Shown one piece after another: positions 2,041-32,483 of a DNA stretch of 64,000 nt (positions within the stretch are counted from its first letter, which is position 1; each line of letters opens with the position of its first letter). Origin of the DNA: Lysobacterales bacterium (GTDB taxonomy: Bacteria; Pseudomonadota; Gammaproteobacteria; Xanthomonadales; Marinicellaceae). Both the position numbers and the translations under genes were made by a program. The stretch spans positions 1 to 64,000 of the forward strand of contig JAMOMK010000026.1 in the NCBI GenBank assembly GCA_027067055.1, in the 5' to 3' direction. The notes beneath the pieces were generated by a model. That model was not told where the DNA came from. It searched no databases and saw only the letters and a list, made by a program, of their open reading frames with translations.

Positions 2041-3083
2041 AAACAGGGGTCAAGTGACTTGTTCATGAATTAAAAATATTATACAATATCCCTATGCCAA
2101 GACCGCAAAGAATAGAGTATGAAAATGCCCTCTATCACGTTATGAATCGTGGCAGAGGTCAGCGAATGATTTTCCTTGATGAAAAGTATTACCATGCTTT
2201 TCTAGAAACATTGAATGAAGTACATACACGTTTTGGTTGTGTAATTCATGCTTATTGTTTAATGGGGAATCATTATCATCTTTTATTGGAAACTCCCAAT
2301 GCAAATTTATCAAGGATTATGCGTCATATTAATGGTGTTTATACTCAACGGTATAATCGATTAAAAAAAACAGATGGTCCGTTATTTCGAGGGAGGTATA
2401 AAGCAATACTGGTTGATAAAGATGAGTATATTATGCAATTAACTCGTTATATACATCGCAATCCAATTGATATGAAAAAGCCACTAGTATCGGATTTGGT
2501 CGATTATAATTGGTCAAGTTATCGTGCCTATATTAATCAATCAAAAACACCTAACTGGCTTTATCGAAAATTTACATATGAATTATTGGCTCATAAGAAT
2601 AAATATAGAGCTTATAAACAATTTGTAAACAATGAGACTGATGATGAGATTCAGAAAATATATGGTAAGAGAAATTTACCCAACATAATTGGGGCAAAGC
2701 CTTTTAAAACATGGGTCTATAATAAATTATTATCGGGCACAGCACCTGAAGAAAAAACAAGACTAATCAAACAACATATATCAATGGAAGCAATAGTTGA
2801 ATTGATTTCAACCTATTATCAATTGGATAATGAGATAATTACACAAAGGGCAGCTGGCAGAAAGTCAGAACTAGAGCCAAGAAAAGTTGCAATGTACTTT
2901 TGCCAAGAATTAAGCGGTAAATACCTAAAAGATATTGCACATTATTTTAATCTTAAACATATTGGCTCTGTAAGTTATCATACAAGCATGATTAGACAAA
3001 AGAGAAGAGGTGATAAAAAGTTTGGCAATAAAATAGATAAACTGGCAGAATTGATTCATGAACAAGTCACTTGACCCCTGTTT
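2041..3083 (+). mobile_element. Y1-transposase unit with perfect 30-bp inverted ends
   Basis: The 30 bases at 2041-2070 are the exact reverse complement of 3054-3083. Each arm contains the near-palindrome CAAGTGACTTG next to AGGGGT. Between them lies only one Y1 (HUH) transposase gene. The right arm overlaps the end of the gene, so the last codons and the TGA are part of the repeat. Immediately outside, a 16-bp sequence, TGACCCCTGTTTCCCC, occurs twice in tandem (3072-3087, 3088-3103). This fits a REP-associated transposase with its own REP-like hairpins. No target duplication is obvious. Confidence 0.8.
2094..3074 (+). CDS. REP-associated Y1 (HUH) tyrosine transposase with DnaA-like C-terminal domain
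   Basis: 326 residues. The N-terminal 150 residues match the Y1/IS200-like transposase fold: MPRPQRIEYENALYHVMNRG at the start, the metal-binding HUH motif in GNHYHLLLE (about residue 60), LFRGRYKA, and the nucleophile tyrosine in TRYIHRNP. The C-terminal 70 residues (RKSELEPRKVAMYFC, then KDIAHYFNLKHIGSVSYH) resemble the DnaA domain IV helix-turn-helix, which is known in one branch of these transposases. The enzyme should nick and rejoin single-stranded DNA at its flanking palindromes. No good ribosome binding site is visible before ATG 2094. The frame is intact, so it may be active. Confidence 0.88.
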   Translation: MPRPQRIEYENALYHVMNRGRGQRMIFLDEKYYHAFLETLNEVHTRFGCVIHAYCLMGNHYHLLLETPNANLSRIMRHINGVYTQRYNRLKKTDGPLFRGRYKAILVDKDEYIMQLTRYIHRNPIDMKKPLVSDLVDYNWSSYRAYINQSKTPNWLYRKFTYELLAHKNKYRAYKQFVNNETDDEIQKIYGKRNLPNIIGAKPFKTWVYNKLLSGTAPEEKTRLIKQHISMEAIVELISTYYQLDNEIITQRAAGRKSELEPRKVAMYFCQELSGKYLKDIAHYFNLKHIGSVSYHTSMIRQKRRGDKKFGNKIDKLAELIHEQVT

Positions 3084-3117: not shown

Positions 3118-3795
3118 TTGCGACCCAAAAAACGTAACTATGGTGTACGAACTAGTGGAATGCGGGCAGGTAACCCAAAGACTAACCCCAATGCATTTTA
3201 TTGTATTCCACCCGAGTTGGTTATGGATTATATGCAGGATTATTTGAAATTTTACAATAATGACACTGATACACTTGATAAAGCGTTGTTTGCTTTATTG
3301 CAGTTTATCTTTATTCACCCCTTTAGAGATGGTAATGGTCGATTATCTCGATTGTTATTAATCAATATTGTGCAAAAACAATATGGTTTTGTCTTTGCGT
3401 CTTTATTGGCGATTTATCTTAAAAATATAGATAAAAAGGAATTCCATAATTGTATGAAGTATTACCGTGAAGGTGATATTCAACCTTTAAAGGGCTTTCA
3501 TGAAAAAGCCGTTAACTGGACTCACAAGAGCTACAACGAACTTTGTGGGTTGCTCTCTAATTATGAAAAGATGATTGGAGAAAAACAAATAGATTCTGAT
3601 GAATGCTATAAGCAGGTAATTGTCAAAACTCCGCTAAAGAGTACTAAAAAACTAGACTCAAGTATTTTTCAAGAACATAGTAAAAAGGGAAGTAATTCTA
3701 TTTATATTAACTCAGCATTATTAAGTGTCTTAAACCAATTTGATTATTATCTGCGTTTTGAATTAAGGACTTGTATGATGTCTGCTAAAGCGTGA
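3118..3795 (+). pseudogene. Truncated Fic-domain protein (AMP-transferase family)
   Basis: The Fic signature HPFRDGNGRLSR is complete at about residues 62-73, preceded by the PNAFYCIPPELV segment typical of these proteins. Fic enzymes usually transfer AMP to a hydroxyl of a target protein. Full-length class members have another 100-150 residues upstream; here the frame is open only from 3091, has just a TTG as start, and its upstream side is the repeat edge of the transposase unit. The last 20 residues look unrelated to the usual C-terminal winged helix. I infer loss of the 5' end, perhaps with an altered 3' end. A functional short form cannot be excluded, since the catalytic motif is intact. 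Confidence 0.6.
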
Positions 3796-3896
3796 TTAAA
3801 CCTAGTAAACTGACACAAGGAGCACACATAGGTACTCCACTACTTTTGTATGAGGAAGTTTAATAATCGGCAAGTTGCTCTATACTTCTTTTTCTT

Positions 3897-6800
3897 TCAA
3901 AACATCAAACTCGGATCACCCAATAAATTCCAATTAATCAACAAGTCATCATTGGGTTGTAGTTGTTGTTTGCTGGTTAATATAGCATTTCCTATGGTTT
4001 GTCCTTGGTTGTACATTTTGTCTAAAATAGTGACATTCATCGTTTGGTTACTCTGATAAAATCCCAGTACCATCGCTCCTTGAATGGCGACAGCTCCGTA
4101 TTCACCAGAAAACAGCCATTGGTGAGCTAAAGTGTTGATGCTTGGTGATTGGTAGTAGGTGGTATAACAACTCAAGGGTGATAAAATTGTGGGGTAAGTG
4201 CTATTGTTAAAATCACTAATGTGTTGAGCTTTTACAATGCCCTGATATGCCCATGATGTTGGGGAGCCGTGGCCGTCAAAGATGATGTTATCAATACCAT
4301 TATTCACTTGTTGTATTATATTGCTGCGCGCATTAACAATAGGGTTGGGGTCATTTGCAGCAAGGTAATCATCAATAAAAACACGAGAAACGGAACTTGA
4401 GTTCAAATTTAAGTCAGTTATTATGGAATTCACTTGTCCTGCAAAATCTGTATCATTTATGTCTTTTTGTTCAGCAATAAGCAGTGTTCTAAGATTGTTT
4501 TTTGGGTGGTTTTGTTGCCACTGAATAGTTTTGTTCACTATGTTGGACAAGTCTTGCTGAGTTCTGACTGGCCAACGACCCAAGGCAAAATCTGCTTGAA
4601 AATCATTGTTTATATCTGTATAGGGAAAGTCAGTAGGTGCGTAGTTAATTTGCGTACTTGTTTGGCGGTAGTTGGTTGGTATAAAACTTAAAGCATTGTT
4701 GTTGAGATAATCATTATAATCATACGTTTGTCCACCAACTAATAACACATAGTCAAAACTGTTCTGATTGTAGGCATCGGTTAAGAAGGATTGTAATGCT
4801 TGGGGTGTGTCGTAACCATAGCCATACTGTTGAACTATATCGTACCAATTAATAATTGTGGCTGAATAGCCTTGTTGTTGCTTTGATGCTATGAAATTTT
4901 GTAAGGTACTGTTAATGAAATTCGGGTGCGCTATAATCAAATAGTCTGCACTGCCGGTATTAATCGAAGGTAATGAAGTCGCTTCAATTAATGAAGGTCT
5001 GATGAGTTGGTTCTCAGTAGCAACCCAGTAATGGTTTTCATTGTTAGAATTAATACCAGTAAGGTAAAATCCATTATTTGTAGCGCTTTCAAAACTATTC
5101 TCAAATAATATATCGGGGTTAATGGTGCTATTTGGTAATTGTAACTGGTATAAATCGCCTGTTGAATTTTCAGCATAGGCAACTAAGTCTTGGGTAGAAA
5201 ATCCAGAAAGGTTAAACTGGGTATTTTGGCTGCTGTCATTAAACTCAAGCAAGTCATTAGTGGCAACTAAGTTTCTTTTATAAGCCAATTTTAACTTATC
5301 AAAATAAACCAAATCAGCAGCAAATCCAGTGTCATTAACGAGCTCGAAGTTAAGGGTGTTAATGCCATGTGTCAGTAATTGACCATTAATTGTCGTGCTT
5401 ATATTCCACTGGAATAATCCATCACTTCTTCCATCATAGATTGTGTTTTGGTTGACTGATACTTTTAAGTGGTGGTCAGGGTTGGTTTGAGGGTTTCCTG
5501 CAAAATTGGTTAGACCTAATAGCGTTAAATCCAGAGAGAAATCTTGTTGCAATTGGACGCTTTCATTTAATGTGAAATCAATGCTGTAAATGTCTCCATT
5601 ACCAGAATTATAGAGCAATTTTTCAAACCACGGATCGTCATAAGTACTGGCAAGGCTATAGCTGAGGTTTTTGTTTCTCTGCGTTGTTTCAATGTAATCA
5701 GATATGGTTGTAAGAGCTTCAGTGGCATTGTTTGTTGATGCCTCTTTGACAAGTTGAGAGTCTATGCTTAACTGATAAACTGAGTAGTCAAGATAAAGAG
5801 AGTCAGTAGAATTCACTTGCTTTACAAAAAAATCAATGTATTTTTCACCAGTTATTTTATCAGTTAGTATATTTCTAGCAATGGCAACTCCTTTGTGAGA
5901 AACGGCAATGTCTGTATCTGAATAACTGGTTAAATCAAATCCAAAAGGCAATAAGTCTGAACTATAAATGCGCATCAAACCAGGGTTTTTACTTTGGATG
6001 TTGATAATGCTAGTCGCGTTGTTAGCGGACTTGTTAATGCTTGCAATATGACGCAGTTGCTTATTTTCTTGTTGAATTTGTGCCCAATTGATTTTTTGTT
6101 CTTTTGGTTTTGTGCCATAGGCTTTGTTCAAATCATAGCTTCGATAAAAGTCTTCGTGACCATTAGTATTAACGGTAGATAGTTGAAACTTTTTGATGCT
6201 ATCAGTGAGATTAAACTCATGACTGTATTTAATTGGGCTTAAACTATTTATTGCCTTTGAGGTTATGAGGTTTTTATTAAGTTTACTCCACTTATTGTAT
6301 TTGTCTTGTATCCAAATATTATAGCCAACATTAAAGTGTTCTGATTCGCTAATCCAATTAATTGATAAGGTGTCACTAGTAATGACAGAGTTAATAAATG
6401 CAATAGTGACATCAAAGGTTTCCTCTGAGCCGAAGCTTGCTGTTACTGTGTTTACAGGGCATTGAGGGCTGACAATAGCAAGATTGGTGGTATTGAATGC
6501 TTGCCATGTTGTTCCAGCATTGGTACTAAATTGCAGGGTTGCTCCACCATCACAGCATTGTTCATAGCCAATATAACGAAGAACATGGTATCCCGTAGAT
6601 AAGGCTTGAGTGCCATAAAGTATTTCTTGTGAAGTGGCATAACTTGCCCAGGAATTACTCCACCACATATCATCAGCGGTGCCATTTGGAGCCCAGAGTT
6701 CTTCGATTACAGTATTGTCAACGTAAATACTGCCACCATCACCACTATCTCCTCCAAATCTAAATTCCCAAGTTGCTGCTGTAGGAACATTAAAAAACAT

Positions 6801-12003: not shown

Positions 12004-12024
12004 GATGGGCGCAGCCCATCCTAC
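12004..12024 (-). repeat. REP palindrome 2 (inverted)
   Basis: GATGGGCGCAGCCCATC followed by CTAC, so the GTAG head faces left. It is paired with 11925-11945, and the interval matches 12686-12783 in sequence. Confidence 0.8.
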
Positions 12025-12071
12025 GGGGAGAATTGAGTTTACTTTGGATTCAATATTAACTGGATGTTTGG

Positions 12072-12092
12072 GTAGGATGGGCTCTGCCCATC
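12072..12092 (+). repeat. REP palindrome 3
   Basis: GTAG plus GATGGGCTCTGCCCATC, five bases beyond the stop codon of the transposase gene. Confidence 0.8.
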
Positions 12093-12097
12093 AAAAA

Positions 12098-12634
12098 CTA
12101 ATGGTAATCTTTAAGTTGAGTAAAATCACACCACTCTTCATCATAAAAACCAGCAGAAACAAATTTTCTAAATGACGAAAACTCCCAATCGTAAGCTTTA
12201 TTCACTAGTCCATGTTTTACAGGGTTGTAATGGATATAATCGGTTAAATGATTTAAATCGATCTCATTACGGATGGTGTGTTCATAAAATCGCCTATGCC
12301 AGACACCACTTTCTCTTTTATTTACTTTACTCTGTGATATTTCCTCTAATAACTGTTGACGTAATTGAGTGGGTAAAATTTTTGTAAATGTCATTTTTAT
12401 TAATGAAATGATTTTTGGATAGTCAGCAATATGCTCTGGTTTTAAGATTGTATGAAAATGTTCAGGCATAATTGAGATGGCATAAATTTCATATCTAAAC
12501 TGTTTTTTGCACTGTTGTAAAGCTTGTTTGAATTCGGAAATATAATCAGTTAATAAACTGCGTTTGCGATTATTAATTGTAACAGTGATAAAAACATAAC
12601 TGTTTTCAACAAAGACTCTTCTAAAATTTGGCAT
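12098..12634 (-). CDS. REP-associated tyrosine transposase (RAYT)
   Basis: 178 residues, the usual length for a RAYT. It has the HUH motif in MPEHFHTILKP, the WHRRFYEHTI segment and the nucleophile tyrosine in DYIHYNPVKHGL. It differs from the transposase at 2094 in lacking the DnaA-like tail. GTAG-headed REP palindromes lie directly after its stop and on both outer sides, the arrangement in which RAYTs are believed to mobilise REP elements by single-strand nicking. The frame is intact. Confidence 0.92.
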   Translation of the reverse strand: MPNFRRVFVENSYVFITVTINNRKRSLLTDYISEFKQALQQCKKQFRYEIYAISIMPEHFHTILKPEHIADYPKIISLIKMTFTKILPTQLRQQLLEEISQSKVNKRESGVWHRRFYEHTIRNEIDLNHLTDYIHYNPVKHGLVNKAYDWEFSSFRKFVSAGFYDEEWCDFTQLKDYH

Positions 12635-12685: not shown

Positions 12686-12706
12686 GTAGGATGGGCTCTG
12701 CCCATC
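12686..12706 (+). repeat. REP palindrome 4
   Basis: GTAG plus GATGGGCTCTGCCCATC, identical to copy 3. The preceding bases AAAACTCGATGCATGT are also shared with copy 1, so the whole pair was duplicated as a unit. Confidence 0.85.
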
Positions 12707-12762
12707 AAGTTAGGGCTCTTACTCAAAGGTAGTGCTACTATTTAAGAACTAGGTATATTTTC

Positions 12763-12783
12763 GATGGGCGCAGCCTATCCTAC
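12763..12783 (-). repeat. REP palindrome 5 (inverted)
   Basis: GATGGGCGCAGCCTATC plus CTAC. Its GTAG head supplies the TAG stop codon of the DUF3291 gene. Confidence 0.8.
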
Positions 12784-29460: not shown

Positions 29461-30540
29461 ATGCTTAGTTATTACCTCTTATTTTTGATTCCCTTAGTGT
29501 TGGCTTGGTCAAAATCAAACTCAATGATTGCTATTAACAAACAACCAAGCACACAGTCAGGTCAAAGTTTATTTCCTTGGATTTTCATGGGTCTAATTTT
29601 CACGTTATTTATTGGCTATCGCCACGAAGTAGGTGGAGATTGGGGTACATACCTACGTCATTTCCAAGCAATGAGTTATTTTAACCTCGATGAAATTTTA
29701 AAGAGATCAGACCCTGGTTATTATTTGATTAATTGGTTCATGGCTGATTGGGGCTATGATATTTACTTAGTTAATATAATTTGTGGTGCTCTATTTATGA
29801 CTGGTTTAATTATTTTTGCGCGTCAACAACCCAATCCATGGCTTGCAATTACTGTATCTGTACCATATTTAATTGTGGTCGTCGCTATGGGGTATACCCG
29901 TCAAGGCGTTGCTTTGGGGTTTGTTTTTTGGGGGTTGGTAGCCTTAGAAAAACAACAGTTCAAACAATTTTTAATATTAGTTGCATTGGCAGCAACTTTT
30001 CACAAATCTGCTGTGTTGATGATTGGTTTGGGAATGTTTTTGCAAGGAAAAGGGAAGGCTATTCGATTTTTGGCTGTTGCATTTGTCGGTTTTGGTATTT
30101 GGAGTGCTTTTTTATCACAGCATCAACAACAGTTGTGGAATTCATACGTGACTGTTCAAATGCAATCCCAAGGTGCATTCATTCGTGTAGCGATGAACTT
30201 AATACCTGCTTTGATTTTTTTATTGTATAGAAAAGAATGGAAGAAGGAGTTTAAGGATTATTCCTTTTGGGTAATGATAGCTTTAGGTTCACTTGGGAGT
30301 GTGGTTTTAGTGAATTTTGCATCCACTGCTGTTGATCGAGTGGCTTTGTATTTTACCCCTATTCAAGTGGTTGTTTATTCTCGTTTGCCTTATTTGTTAC
30401 GAGATAAATTTAATCCACAAACAGTTACATTTGCTATTTTGGCATATTATGCATTAGTTTTGTATGTTTGGTTAAACTATGCCACTCATGCACGTTATTG
30501 GGTTCCCTATAGTAATGCCCTGTTTGATGGTGTTTTCTAG
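29461..30540 (+). CDS. EpsG family polymerase (Wzy-like)
   Basis: 359 residues with about ten membrane segments. The motif GYRHEVGGDWGTYLRHF and SDPGYYLINWFM are typical of EpsG, the capsule and exopolysaccharide polymerase family that joins flipped repeat units in the periplasm. It sits in the place of a Wzy gene, after the transferases. Its TAG stop shares the G with the next GTG start. Confidence 0.88.
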   Translation: MLSYYLLFLIPLVLAWSKSNSMIAINKQPSTQSGQSLFPWIFMGLIFTLFIGYRHEVGGDWGTYLRHFQAMSYFNLDEILKRSDPGYYLINWFMADWGYDIYLVNIICGALFMTGLIIFARQQPNPWLAITVSVPYLIVVVAMGYTRQGVALGFVFWGLVALEKQQFKQFLILVALAATFHKSAVLMIGLGMFLQGKGKAIRFLAVAFVGFGIWSAFLSQHQQQLWNSYVTVQMQSQGAFIRVAMNLIPALIFLLYRKEWKKEFKDYSFWVMIALGSLGSVVLVNFASTAVDRVALYFTPIQVVVYSRLPYLLRDKFNPQTVTFAILAYYALVLYVWLNYATHARYWVPYSNALFDGVF

Positions 30541-32483
30541 TGTGCGGTTTAGTCGGTTTTATTAGTAATCAACAACAAGACTCAGTTTTAGAGTCTATGC
30601 TTGAGGTTTTGGCTTATCGTGGGTCTGATGATTCGGGTTTTGTTGTTAATCAGGTTGCGGACAATTATGTCCATCTTGGACAAAATCGCTTAGCTATTCA
30701 GGATACTTCTAAAAAAGGACATCAGCCTTTTGTCTCTGATTGTGGCAATTATAATCTTGTGTTTAATGGTGAGGTTTATAATTTTAAATCCATCCGTGAA
30801 GAACTTGAAACATTAGGTCAGAGCTTTATATCGGGTTCTGATACTGAGGTGATTCTTTATGCTTATAAACACTGGGGAATTGAGTGTTTAGATAAGTTTA
30901 TCGGTATGTTTGCTTTTGCGCTTTTGGATAAGCACAAACAACAATTAACCTTGGTGCGTGATAGAGCAGGGGTCAAGCCCTTGTATTATTATCGTGGTAA
31001 GAATGAATTTGCCTTTGCTTCTGAATTAAAATCTTTTCATCAATTACCATCATTTACTAAAAAGTTAAACAAGTCTGTTTTGTCCTATTATTTTCAATTT
31101 GGTTATATTCCTGCTCCACATTCTGTTTTTGAGAATGTGTATAAGTTGGAAGCTGGGTGTTATTTGCAAATAGATATTTTAAAGGGGTCGGTACCCTTAT
31201 TAACAAATTCTTTTAATAAGGGCACTGACCCCTTTAAAATAACCAAATATTGGGATGTGGCTGAGCATTATAAAAAGGATAAGTTTGATGACAGTGAAGC
31301 CAAAATACTGTCAAACTTAGAAGAGTTGTTGACTGATGCGGTAAATTTGCGCATGGTGTCTGATGTGCCGGTGGGTGTGTTTTTAAGTGGTGGTTATGAT
31401 TCATCTTTAGTTACTGCTTTGTTGGCTCAAGATAAATCACGAAAACTGCACACCTTTACCATTGGTTTTGAAGATAAAAAATTCAATGAAGCCGAACATG
31501 CAAAAGCCATTGCAAAGCATTTTAATACTAACCATGCCGAATACTATGTCAGCAACCAAGACATGCTGGATAAGATTGAGTTGCTTCCCTACCATTATGA
31601 CGAGCCTTTCGCGGATAGTTCGGCTATTGCAACCATGATTGTTTCTGAATTGGCTAAAAAAGGTGTCACGGTTGCCTTGTCAGCAGATGGCGGTGATGAG
31701 TCGTTTTGCGGCTATACTAAGTACTTTATGTTGAAACGTTTTGAATCTACCTTTAACAGTTCAATCAAAAAAGGTGGTGTTAAAAGCCTATTAAATTTAT
31801 TCAGTGAAAAACAAGCCGAACGATTTAATGGTTGGCTGCCAAAAAAATACCAAGCTAGCAATATTCAAGATAAATACATAAAGTTTAAGCGAGCGATGGG
31901 GTCGCAGTCATTATCTGAAATGTTTTGCAACGCCTCATCTTATGTAGATAGCAATGATGTGGCTCGATTTTTGAAAGTTAAACCAAGCTTATTAGGTCGG
32001 TTTGAGTTTAATGATGAACTATCTTTTATGGATAACATGATGCTATGCGACTATCAGACTTTTATGGTTGACGATGTCTTAACCAAGGTTGATAGGGCAA
32101 CGATGAGTGTCAGTTTGGAGGGCAGAGAACCTTTGCTTGACCACCGGATTGTTGAGTTTATGGCACGTGTTCCCCTAGAAGTTAAGTATAAAAATAAACA
32201 GGGCAAGTATCTAGCCCGGAAAATTTTGTATAAACACATTCCACAAGCGATGATAGATAAGCCCAAGGCTGGTTTTCAAATTCCTTTGGTTGATTGGATG
32301 TTAACTGACCTTAAACGACTAGTTGATAAACATATCGATGGAACGCAATTAGATGATGAAATATTTGATATTTCTGAAGTGATGGCTATAAAGCGTGAGT
32401 TTTATAACGGCAATCATGTGTTGGTTAATGTTTTATGGTTTATTCTAATGTTCCAAATGTGGCGGGAGCAATGGGGTGTCTAA
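30540..32483 (+). CDS. asnB: Asparagine synthase-like glutamine amidotransferase with an in-frame palindromic insertion
   Basis: 647 residues from GTG 30540, so that the essential cysteine is residue 2 (MCGLVGF). The N-terminal glutaminase has RLAIQDTS, FNGEVYN and GSDTEVIL; the synthetase half has the PP-loop FLSGGYDSSLVTALL and ALSADGGDESFCGY. In sugar loci such enzymes often amidate uronic acids rather than make free asparagine; that role is an inference. Residues 213-234 are encoded by a 65-bp inverted repeat (31176-31240) not expected in the family. It lies between the two domains, in a linker, so the enzyme may still work. The stop overlaps the next start. Confidence 0.88.
   Translation: MCGLVGFISNQQQDSVLESMLEVLAYRGSDDSGFVVNQVADNYVHLGQNRLAIQDTSKKGHQPFVSDCGNYNLVFNGEVYNFKSIREELETLGQSFISGSDTEVILYAYKHWGIECLDKFIGMFAFALLDKHKQQLTLVRDRAGVKPLYYYRGKNEFAFASELKSFHQLPSFTKKLNKSVLSYYFQFGYIPAPHSVFENVYKLEAGCYLQIDILKGSVPLLTNSFNKGTDPFKITKYWDVAEHYKKDKFDDSEAKILSNLEELLTDAVNLRMVSDVPVGVFLSGGYDSSLVTALLAQDKSRKLHTFTIGFEDKKFNEAEHAKAIAKHFNTNHAEYYVSNQDMLDKIELLPYHYDEPFADSSAIATMIVSELAKKGVTVALSADGGDESFCGYTKYFMLKRFESTFNSSIKKGGVKSLLNLFSEKQAERFNGWLPKKYQASNIQDKYIKFKRAMGSQSLSEMFCNASSYVDSNDVARFLKVKPSLLGRFEFNDELSFMDNMMLCDYQTFMVDDVLTKVDRATMSVSLEGREPLLDHRIVEFMARVPLEVKYKNKQGKYLARKILYKHIPQAMIDKPKAGFQIPLVDWMLTDLKRLVDKHIDGTQLDDEIFDISEVMAIKREFYNGNHVLVNVLWFILMFQMWREQWGV
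31176..31240. repeat. Palindromic element inside the asnB-like gene
   Basis: The arm 31176-31203 pairs with 31213-31240 at 26 of 28 positions around a nine-base loop; the arm core is AAAGGGGTCGGTACCCTTAT. It is translated in frame. The core AGGGGTCA is shared with the ends of the transposase unit at 2041-3083, so it may be a relative mobilised by that kind of enzyme. Confidence 0.85.

What the first reader, a model, noticed from the sequence alone, without database searches (positions are those of the whole stretch)
31176..31240. Palindromic element translated in frame inside an asparagine synthase-like gene
A 65-bp hairpin element with 28-bp arms sits between the two domains of the enzyme and adds about 20 residues (213-234) without breaking the frame. 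It recalls the Rickettsia palindromic elements that insert in genes and are tolerated as protein loops. Its AGGGGTCA core is shared with the ends of the transposase unit at 2041-3083, so the two may be one mobile family, found here in a coding region.
Basis: partly seen in the sequence, partly recalled or inferred. Interest (0 to 1): 0.72.

Follow-up and report, generated by a model that had tools for sequence, protein, structure and literature searches.

The report
Translated mobile palindrome in asparagine synthase-like gene
A short mobile DNA palindrome, of the kind moved by REP-type (RAYT) transposases, sits in frame inside an enzyme gene and adds a floppy loop to the protein; related bacteria carry the same palindrome translated inside two other genes, and in one of them its middle has flipped over between close relatives.

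Summary
A 67-bp hairpin (31175-31241, 29-nt arms, fold z = -9.5) lies in frame in a 647-aa AsnB-like gene. It is the strongest inverted repeat in the window. Homologues without it are about 14 residues shorter there, and the model shows a disordered loop between two domains.

It is one of a family: inverted pairs of AAAGGGGTCAGTACCCTTT around a variable 15-45 nt spacer, found in 9 of 11 congeners (half-sites) and other Gammaproteobacteria. The same sequence forms the ends of a 228-aa RAYT transposase unit, so the pairs fit the published 'TIR dimers' (GGGGWSAS) of TIR-associated tyrosine transposases. The window's own RAYT (2041-3083) is a cousin with different ends, not the exact match.

Three protein genes carry translated copies: asnB-like, sufD (empty sites in relatives) and murL. 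At same-amino-acid codons the arms are 92% identical against 59% in the rest of the genes (p = 6e-6). Between two congeners with about 98% identical murL, the 44-nt spacer is reverse-complemented (38/44) in frame. Arm homogenisation plus spacer inversion is the published signature of replication template switching.

It behaves like a Rickettsia palindromic element but is a different family. New variant of a known kind.

The parts
31175..31241 (+). palindromic element (TIR dimer): arms 31175-31203 and 31213-31241, 9-nt loop
31181..31198 (+). left terminal-repeat core AAAGGGGTCGGTACCCTT
   Evidence: matches genus-wide core AAAGGGGTCAGTACCCTT
31218..31235 (-). right terminal-repeat core, read on the minus strand AAAGGGGTCAGTGCCCTT
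30540..32483 (+). asparagine synthase-like amidotransferase (647 aa) with the element translated in frame between its two domains
   Evidence: Pfam GATase_7 49-167 and Asn_synthase 260-642; model with insert residues 219-228 disordered
2041..2071 (+). left inverted terminal repeat of the window's RAYT unit (AAACAGGGGTCAAGTGACTTGTTCATGAATT)
   Evidence: cousin terminal repeat, shares GGGGTCA only
2094..3074 (+). RAYT transposase, 326 aa, Y1_Tnp plus Bac_DnaA_C tail (cousin, not the exact-match transposase)
3054..3083 (-). right inverted terminal repeat of the window's RAYT unit

Best explanation
The palindrome is a non-autonomous miniature element: two copies, in inverted orientation, of the terminal repeat of a REP-type tyrosine transposase (a 'TIR dimer', REPIN-like), put there by a RAYT/TIRYT transposase acting in trans. 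It landed in the linker between the glutaminase and synthetase domains of an AsnB-like enzyme, in a frame and length that kept the gene open, so it is translated as a floppy loop and tolerated. Afterwards replication template switching at the hairpin kept the two arms alike and let the spacer change or flip, while the protein outside stayed put. Shown: repeat family, identity of arms with RAYT-unit ends, in-frame copies in three genes, empty sites in sufD, a 60-bp dimer identical at two loci of another genome, one in-frame spacer inversion, excess conservation of arm codons. Inferred: transposition in trans by this transposase, template switching as the maintenance process, and neutrality for the enzyme.
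For: Copies with the same arms and mostly unrelated spacers in own genome: C36:27699 between sufB and sufC, C104:47651 after trpS, C104:65147 in murL, C36:26665 in sufD. Half-sites in 9 of 11 congeners, reversed-pattern control 0; 37 contigs with exact dimers in a scan of 84,980 species, nearly all labelled Gammaproteobacteria, none clearly outside. An intact 228-aa RAYT in congener G007 is flanked by AAGGGGTCGGTACCCTT and its inverted, slightly decayed partner; 23 of 30 RAYT units examined (29 related ones plus this one) have a GGGG[T/A]C-type 5' end, and L272 has AAAAGGGGTCAGTACCCTTT at both ends. In sufD the dimer adds about 26 residues in G000, G003 and G007, with the plain site intact in G009, G006, G010 and G002. 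Identical 60-bp dimer at two loci with unrelated flanks in a Leucothrix MAG. Arm codons conserved 35/38 against 817/1395 in the rest of the genes. murL spacer inverted between G009 and G003, 38/44 matches, z = 9.3, against z = 0.9 direct, in genes 97.6% identical downstream of the element. Complementarity extends beyond the conserved core with copy-specific sequence, about 10 nt outward and 4 nt inward. Loop disordered in the model: pLDDT below 50 at 219-228, mean 87.8.
Against: No intact exact-match transposase was found in own genome and no transposition was observed. In asnB and murL the site is not a clean insertion: total linker length grew by only 14 residues or not at all. Spacers of copies within the genus are mostly unrelated even at orthologous sites, which simple copying of one element does not explain. 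G008 holds a decayed dimer at the sufD site although it groups with species that lack it, so loss, repeat insertion or gene exchange must be invoked. Two papers support template switching in principle (PMC8604942, PMC8794818); neither concerns these elements.
Confidence: 0.77

Rival explanations
1. The hairpin is kept by selection as a working nucleic-acid structure (an mRNA stability, processing or attenuation hairpin, or a protein-binding site), and its coding copies are incidental.
For: The sufB-sufC spacer holds the dimer in six congeners with identical cores, diverged spacers and paired changes in the flanking stem; a seventh (G006) holds a dimer of another REP family at the same place. 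Copies sit just after trpS in several congeners. Arm codons are conserved beyond the gene average.
Against: The gene sets do not share a function, sufD and murL orthologues without it or with decayed copies exist, and inside a translated gene ribosomes would melt the mRNA hairpin. Template switching also yields paired changes without selection. No Rfam family reached its gathering score; the weak hits are generic hairpins.
Confidence: 0.15
2. The shared sites are insertion hot spots: the elements at one orthologous site were inserted independently in each lineage, perhaps into short palindromes, which explains unrelated spacers and opposite orientations.
For: Spacers at the same site are often unrelated or reversed between close species; copy-specific palindromic flanks; G008 sufD.
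Against: sufD copies of G000, G003 and G007 share the same two arm departures and alignable spacers (z 5-8), and trpS spacers align directly among three species (z 4.8-7.4), so single insertions are kept for long; asnB copies share the GGTCGG arm variant. The empty sufD site shows no palindrome.
Confidence: 0.2
3. The palindrome is an invertible cassette flipped by a site-specific recombinase, giving two alternative loop peptides (phase variation).
For: In-frame spacer inversion in murL between congeners; the asnB element also stays open when inverted (ILKGSVPLLKEFVNKGTDPFK).
Against: One inversion among the comparable pairs, 14% diverged, and no recombinase was sought or found next to the copies; template switching explains it without an enzyme.
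Confidence: 0.05
4. The insert is ordinary protein sequence and the DNA palindrome is chance or a codon effect.
For: The AsnB linker varies in length among homologues.
Against: z = -9.5, best inverted repeat of the window against random maxima of 12-13, same arms at other loci.
Confidence: 0.01

Closest known systems
TIR dimers of TIR-associated tyrosine transposases (TIRYT, 'TIRtrons'; PMC3733652, subclass 2.1 discussion in PMC6006769)
   Same: Terminal repeats with the GGGGWSAS motif (here GGGGTCAG) flank a Y1 RAYT gene; free copies occur singly, as inverted dimers and in clusters.
   Different: The passages read list intragenic GTAG and CGTC repeats but no TIR dimers translated in genes, no orthologous retention of such dimers across species and no spacer inversion. 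The supplements were not read.
REPINs / GTAG REP doublets and intragenic REPs (PMC3116915, PMC3733652)
   Same: Inverted pair of short self-complementary repeats moved by a RAYT; dimers inside ORFs encode 20-30 residues in several species.
   Different: No GTAG tag; low copy number; spacers not conserved between copies.
Rickettsia palindromic elements (RPE; Ogata 2000 and 2002, as cited in PMC10969869 and PMC3733652)
   Same: Palindromes inserted in frame in unrelated genes and tolerated as loops.
   Different: RPE-4/-6 carry CGTC tags and have no known transposase; other RPEs are about 150 bp with a conserved peptide. Here 47-75 bp, GGGGTCAG ends, RAYT association, different class of bacteria.
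Template switching at inverted repeats (PMC8604942 in yeast genes; PMC8794818 for RNA hairpins)
   Same: Arms kept alike, paired changes in stems, spacer inversion inside coding genes.
   Different: There the repeats are ordinary short ones; here they are the arms of a mobile element in bacteria.

Membership tests
TIR dimers of TIRYT/RAYT transposases | terminal repeat with GGGGWSAS motif | tested here: met
   family consensus GGGGTCAG; the left arm of the window copy has GGGGTCGG, one departure
TIR dimers of TIRYT/RAYT transposases | same repeat flanks a Y1 RAYT gene in inverted orientation | tested here: met
   G007 unit L154 and L272; own-genome C121 keeps the 3' end only
TIR dimers of TIRYT/RAYT transposases | free copies organised as inverted dimers | tested here: met
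TIR dimers of TIRYT/RAYT transposases | bound and moved by that transposase | not testable with these tools
   indirect only: identical dimer at two loci with unrelated flanks
GTAG REP / REPIN | GTAG (or GGAG) tetranucleotide at one end | tested here: not met
   arms read in full
Rickettsia palindromic elements | in-frame insertion in unrelated genes | tested here: met
   asnB-like, sufD, murL
Rickettsia palindromic elements | RPE sequence (CGTC tag or conserved RPE peptide) | tested here: not met
   arms end in GGGG/CCCC and spacer peptides differ between copies; RPE sequences themselves were not aligned
Template-switch product | arm homogenisation and spacer inversion | tested here: met
   one inversion
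Asparagine synthase (AsnB) | GATase plus Asn_synthase domains | tested here: met
   best NCBIfam full-length score is the XrtA amidotransferase model, below its cut-off, so the exact substrate is open

The most novel reading that the evidence does not exclude
A mobile palindrome acts as a built-in diversity cassette in proteins: arms are held constant by template switching while the coding spacer between them turns over and flips in frame much faster than the rest of the gene, possibly within populations, giving exposed loops a private mutation rate.
Probability: 0.2. Interest if true: 0.78.

Novelty: new variant of a known kind. Interest (0 to 1): 0.52.

Why it matters
Translated palindromes were described mainly for Rickettsia and for GTAG/CGTC repeats. 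Here a third kind, tied to an identifiable transposase, is translated in three conserved genes of uncultured Gammaproteobacteria, with empty, filled and decayed sites side by side. That makes a direct test possible of how selfish DNA enters proteins and how a palindrome survives there. The spacer inversion in murL shows that the same hairpin can rewrite a protein loop in one step.

Tried and rejected
Chance palindrome: rejected. Member of the window's own transposase family in the strict sense: rejected, ends share only GGGGTCA. AGGGGTCA at 30968 as a further copy: rejected, it encodes the conserved GVKPL motif of AsnB. General spacer flipping at sufB-sufC: not found, spacers there are mostly too diverged to tell and the best alignments are direct. 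asnB spacers of G000 and G003: neither orientation aligns. Clean insertion model for asnB and murL: not supported by lengths. Long ORFs across copies in GC-rich contigs L103 and L116, and an N-terminal overlap in L121: not counted as translated copies. Spacer lengths looked grouped (47-55, 58-62, 67-75) but this was not tested and the search window capped the length at 75 for most copies. Literature searches with GGGGTCAG as text and for small inversions at hairpins found nothing useful. The 2002 RPE paper is not held.

Full report
What is there. The inverted repeat lies at 31175-31241, a base wider on each side than reported: two 29-nt arms (two mismatches, one of which pairs as G-U in RNA) around a 9-nt loop. 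It folds 9.5 standard deviations better than shuffled sequence and is by far the strongest inverted repeat in the window. The ORF 30540-32483 reads through it. The protein has GATase_7 and Asn_synthase domains and lies among sugar-polymer genes. A structure model from 31 sequences is confident overall (mean pLDDT 87.8) except in a few stretches; the insert, residues 219-228, is below 50 and lies between strands 207-212 and 232-236. The insert is therefore predicted to be a disordered loop between the domains.

Insert or not. The best homologues without the palindrome have 13 residues between conserved YL and YW; this protein has 27. The congener G003 (86% identical protein) has the palindrome at the same place with perfect 15-nt cores, a different spacer and the same flanking peptide pattern KGSVPL...KGTDPF. 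Both share the variant GGTCGG in the left arm, so one ancestral event is likely. In G003 the right arm matches that variant, in G000 it does not.

The family. In own genome (3.42 Mb, 145 contigs) the same arms occur as dimers at four other places: between sufB and sufC, after trpS, in murL and in sufD, besides single half-sites. In the genus, 9 of 11 genomes hold half-sites, with zero matches to the reversed pattern. A scan of 84,980 species found 37 contigs with exact dimers, nearly all with gammaproteobacterial labels. Most copies are intergenic. The MurL type and the order-mates fit Xanthomonadales; this placement is inference.

The transposase. In congener G007 an intact 228-aa RAYT (Y1_Tnp) is flanked by AAGGGGTCGGTACCCTT and an inverted, slightly decayed partner. 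Of 30 units examined (29 related RAYT units from the class plus the G007 unit), 23 have a GGGG[T/A]C-type 5' end, and one (L272) has exactly AAAAGGGGTCAGTACCCTTT at both ends. Own genome keeps only a truncated copy, on C121. The RAYT in the window (326 aa with a DnaA-type tail) has the related but different end GGGGTCAAGTGACTTG. Di Nocera and colleagues described such units as TIRtrons, with TIR motif GGGGWSAS and free TIR dimers (PMC3733652); a later survey places most of them in RAYT subclass 2.1, part of which has the DnaA-type tail (PMC6006769). Mobility as a unit is suggested by an identical 60-bp dimer at two loci with unrelated flanks in one Leucothrix MAG.

Translated copies. Three genes carry the dimer in frame. 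sufD: G000, G003 and G007, decayed in G008, absent with an intact site in G009, G006, G010 and G002, adding about 26 residues. murL, fused to murD: G000, G009 and G003, decayed in G010 and G004; here total linker length is not larger than in species without it. asnB-like: G000 and G003. The MurL and SufD gene trees disagree about G003 and G009, so gene exchange within the genus, or mixed MAGs, is possible.

What keeps it. Among codons with the same amino acid, arm codons are identical in 35 of 38 cases against 817 of 1395 elsewhere in the three genes, Fisher p = 6e-6, one species pair per gene. Species share history, so this is evidence of slower change, not of its cause. Across 43 distinct copies, base complementarity runs past the conserved core, about 10 nt outward and 4 nt inward, with copy-specific sequence, well above re-paired controls. 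At sufB-sufC the stems of G004, G002 and G000 differ by paired changes. In murL, G009 and G003 are 97.6% identical downstream of the element, yet their 44-nt spacers align only when one is reverse-complemented (38 of 44, z = 9.3), giving loop peptides KSINPPTKTLLSKDL and KSFNNKALADEFVDL between constant GVSTL and RVLTP. The whole element is shorter than a typical read, so misassembly is unlikely (inference). Arm homogenisation plus spacer inversion is what template switching does at inverted repeats in yeast genes (PMC8604942), and template switching can also maintain RNA stems (PMC8794818).

What stays open. Why spacers are unrelated between copies and even between close species at one site (G004 murL against G009) is not explained by template switching alone; repeated insertion, gene exchange or loss and gain may contribute. 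No activity of any transposase was shown. Whether the loop changes the enzyme is unknown.

Verdict. The finding is real and of a known kind (TIR dimers of RAYT-type transposases, working like Rickettsia palindromic elements), in a variant that I did not find described: translated in several conserved genes across species, with an in-frame spacer inversion.

Noticed in passing
window 12004-12095 and 12688-12783: Two doublets of another REP family (GTAGGATGGGC...GCCCATC) on both sides of a small Y1 transposase-like gene at 12098-12634 (minus strand, 178 aa): a likely GTAG-type REPtron.
   Followed up: partly
L202 (G006), spacer before sufC: G006 has a dimer of the GATGGGC..GCCCATC family exactly where six congeners have the GGGGTCAG dimer, as if the sufB-sufC spacer attracts or needs a hairpin.
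   Followed up: partly
L228 (G004) against L227 (G009), murL linker: Genes about 95% identical in DNA but the palindrome spacers are unrelated; spacer turnover is far faster than the gene.
   Followed up: partly
L133 (G009:C16, about 3595-4105): Cluster of six half-sites with leftover RAYT gene ends between them, looking like internally deleted RAYT units (dimers in the making).
   Followed up: no
L094:4252-4311 and L111:420-479: Identical 60-bp dimer at two loci of one Leucothrix MAG with unrelated flanks: recent movement.
   Followed up: yes
L289, trpS downstream, G000 against G003: Inside the spacer GCATGCGC in one species reads GCGCATGC in the other, a possible nested 8-bp inversion.
   Followed up: no
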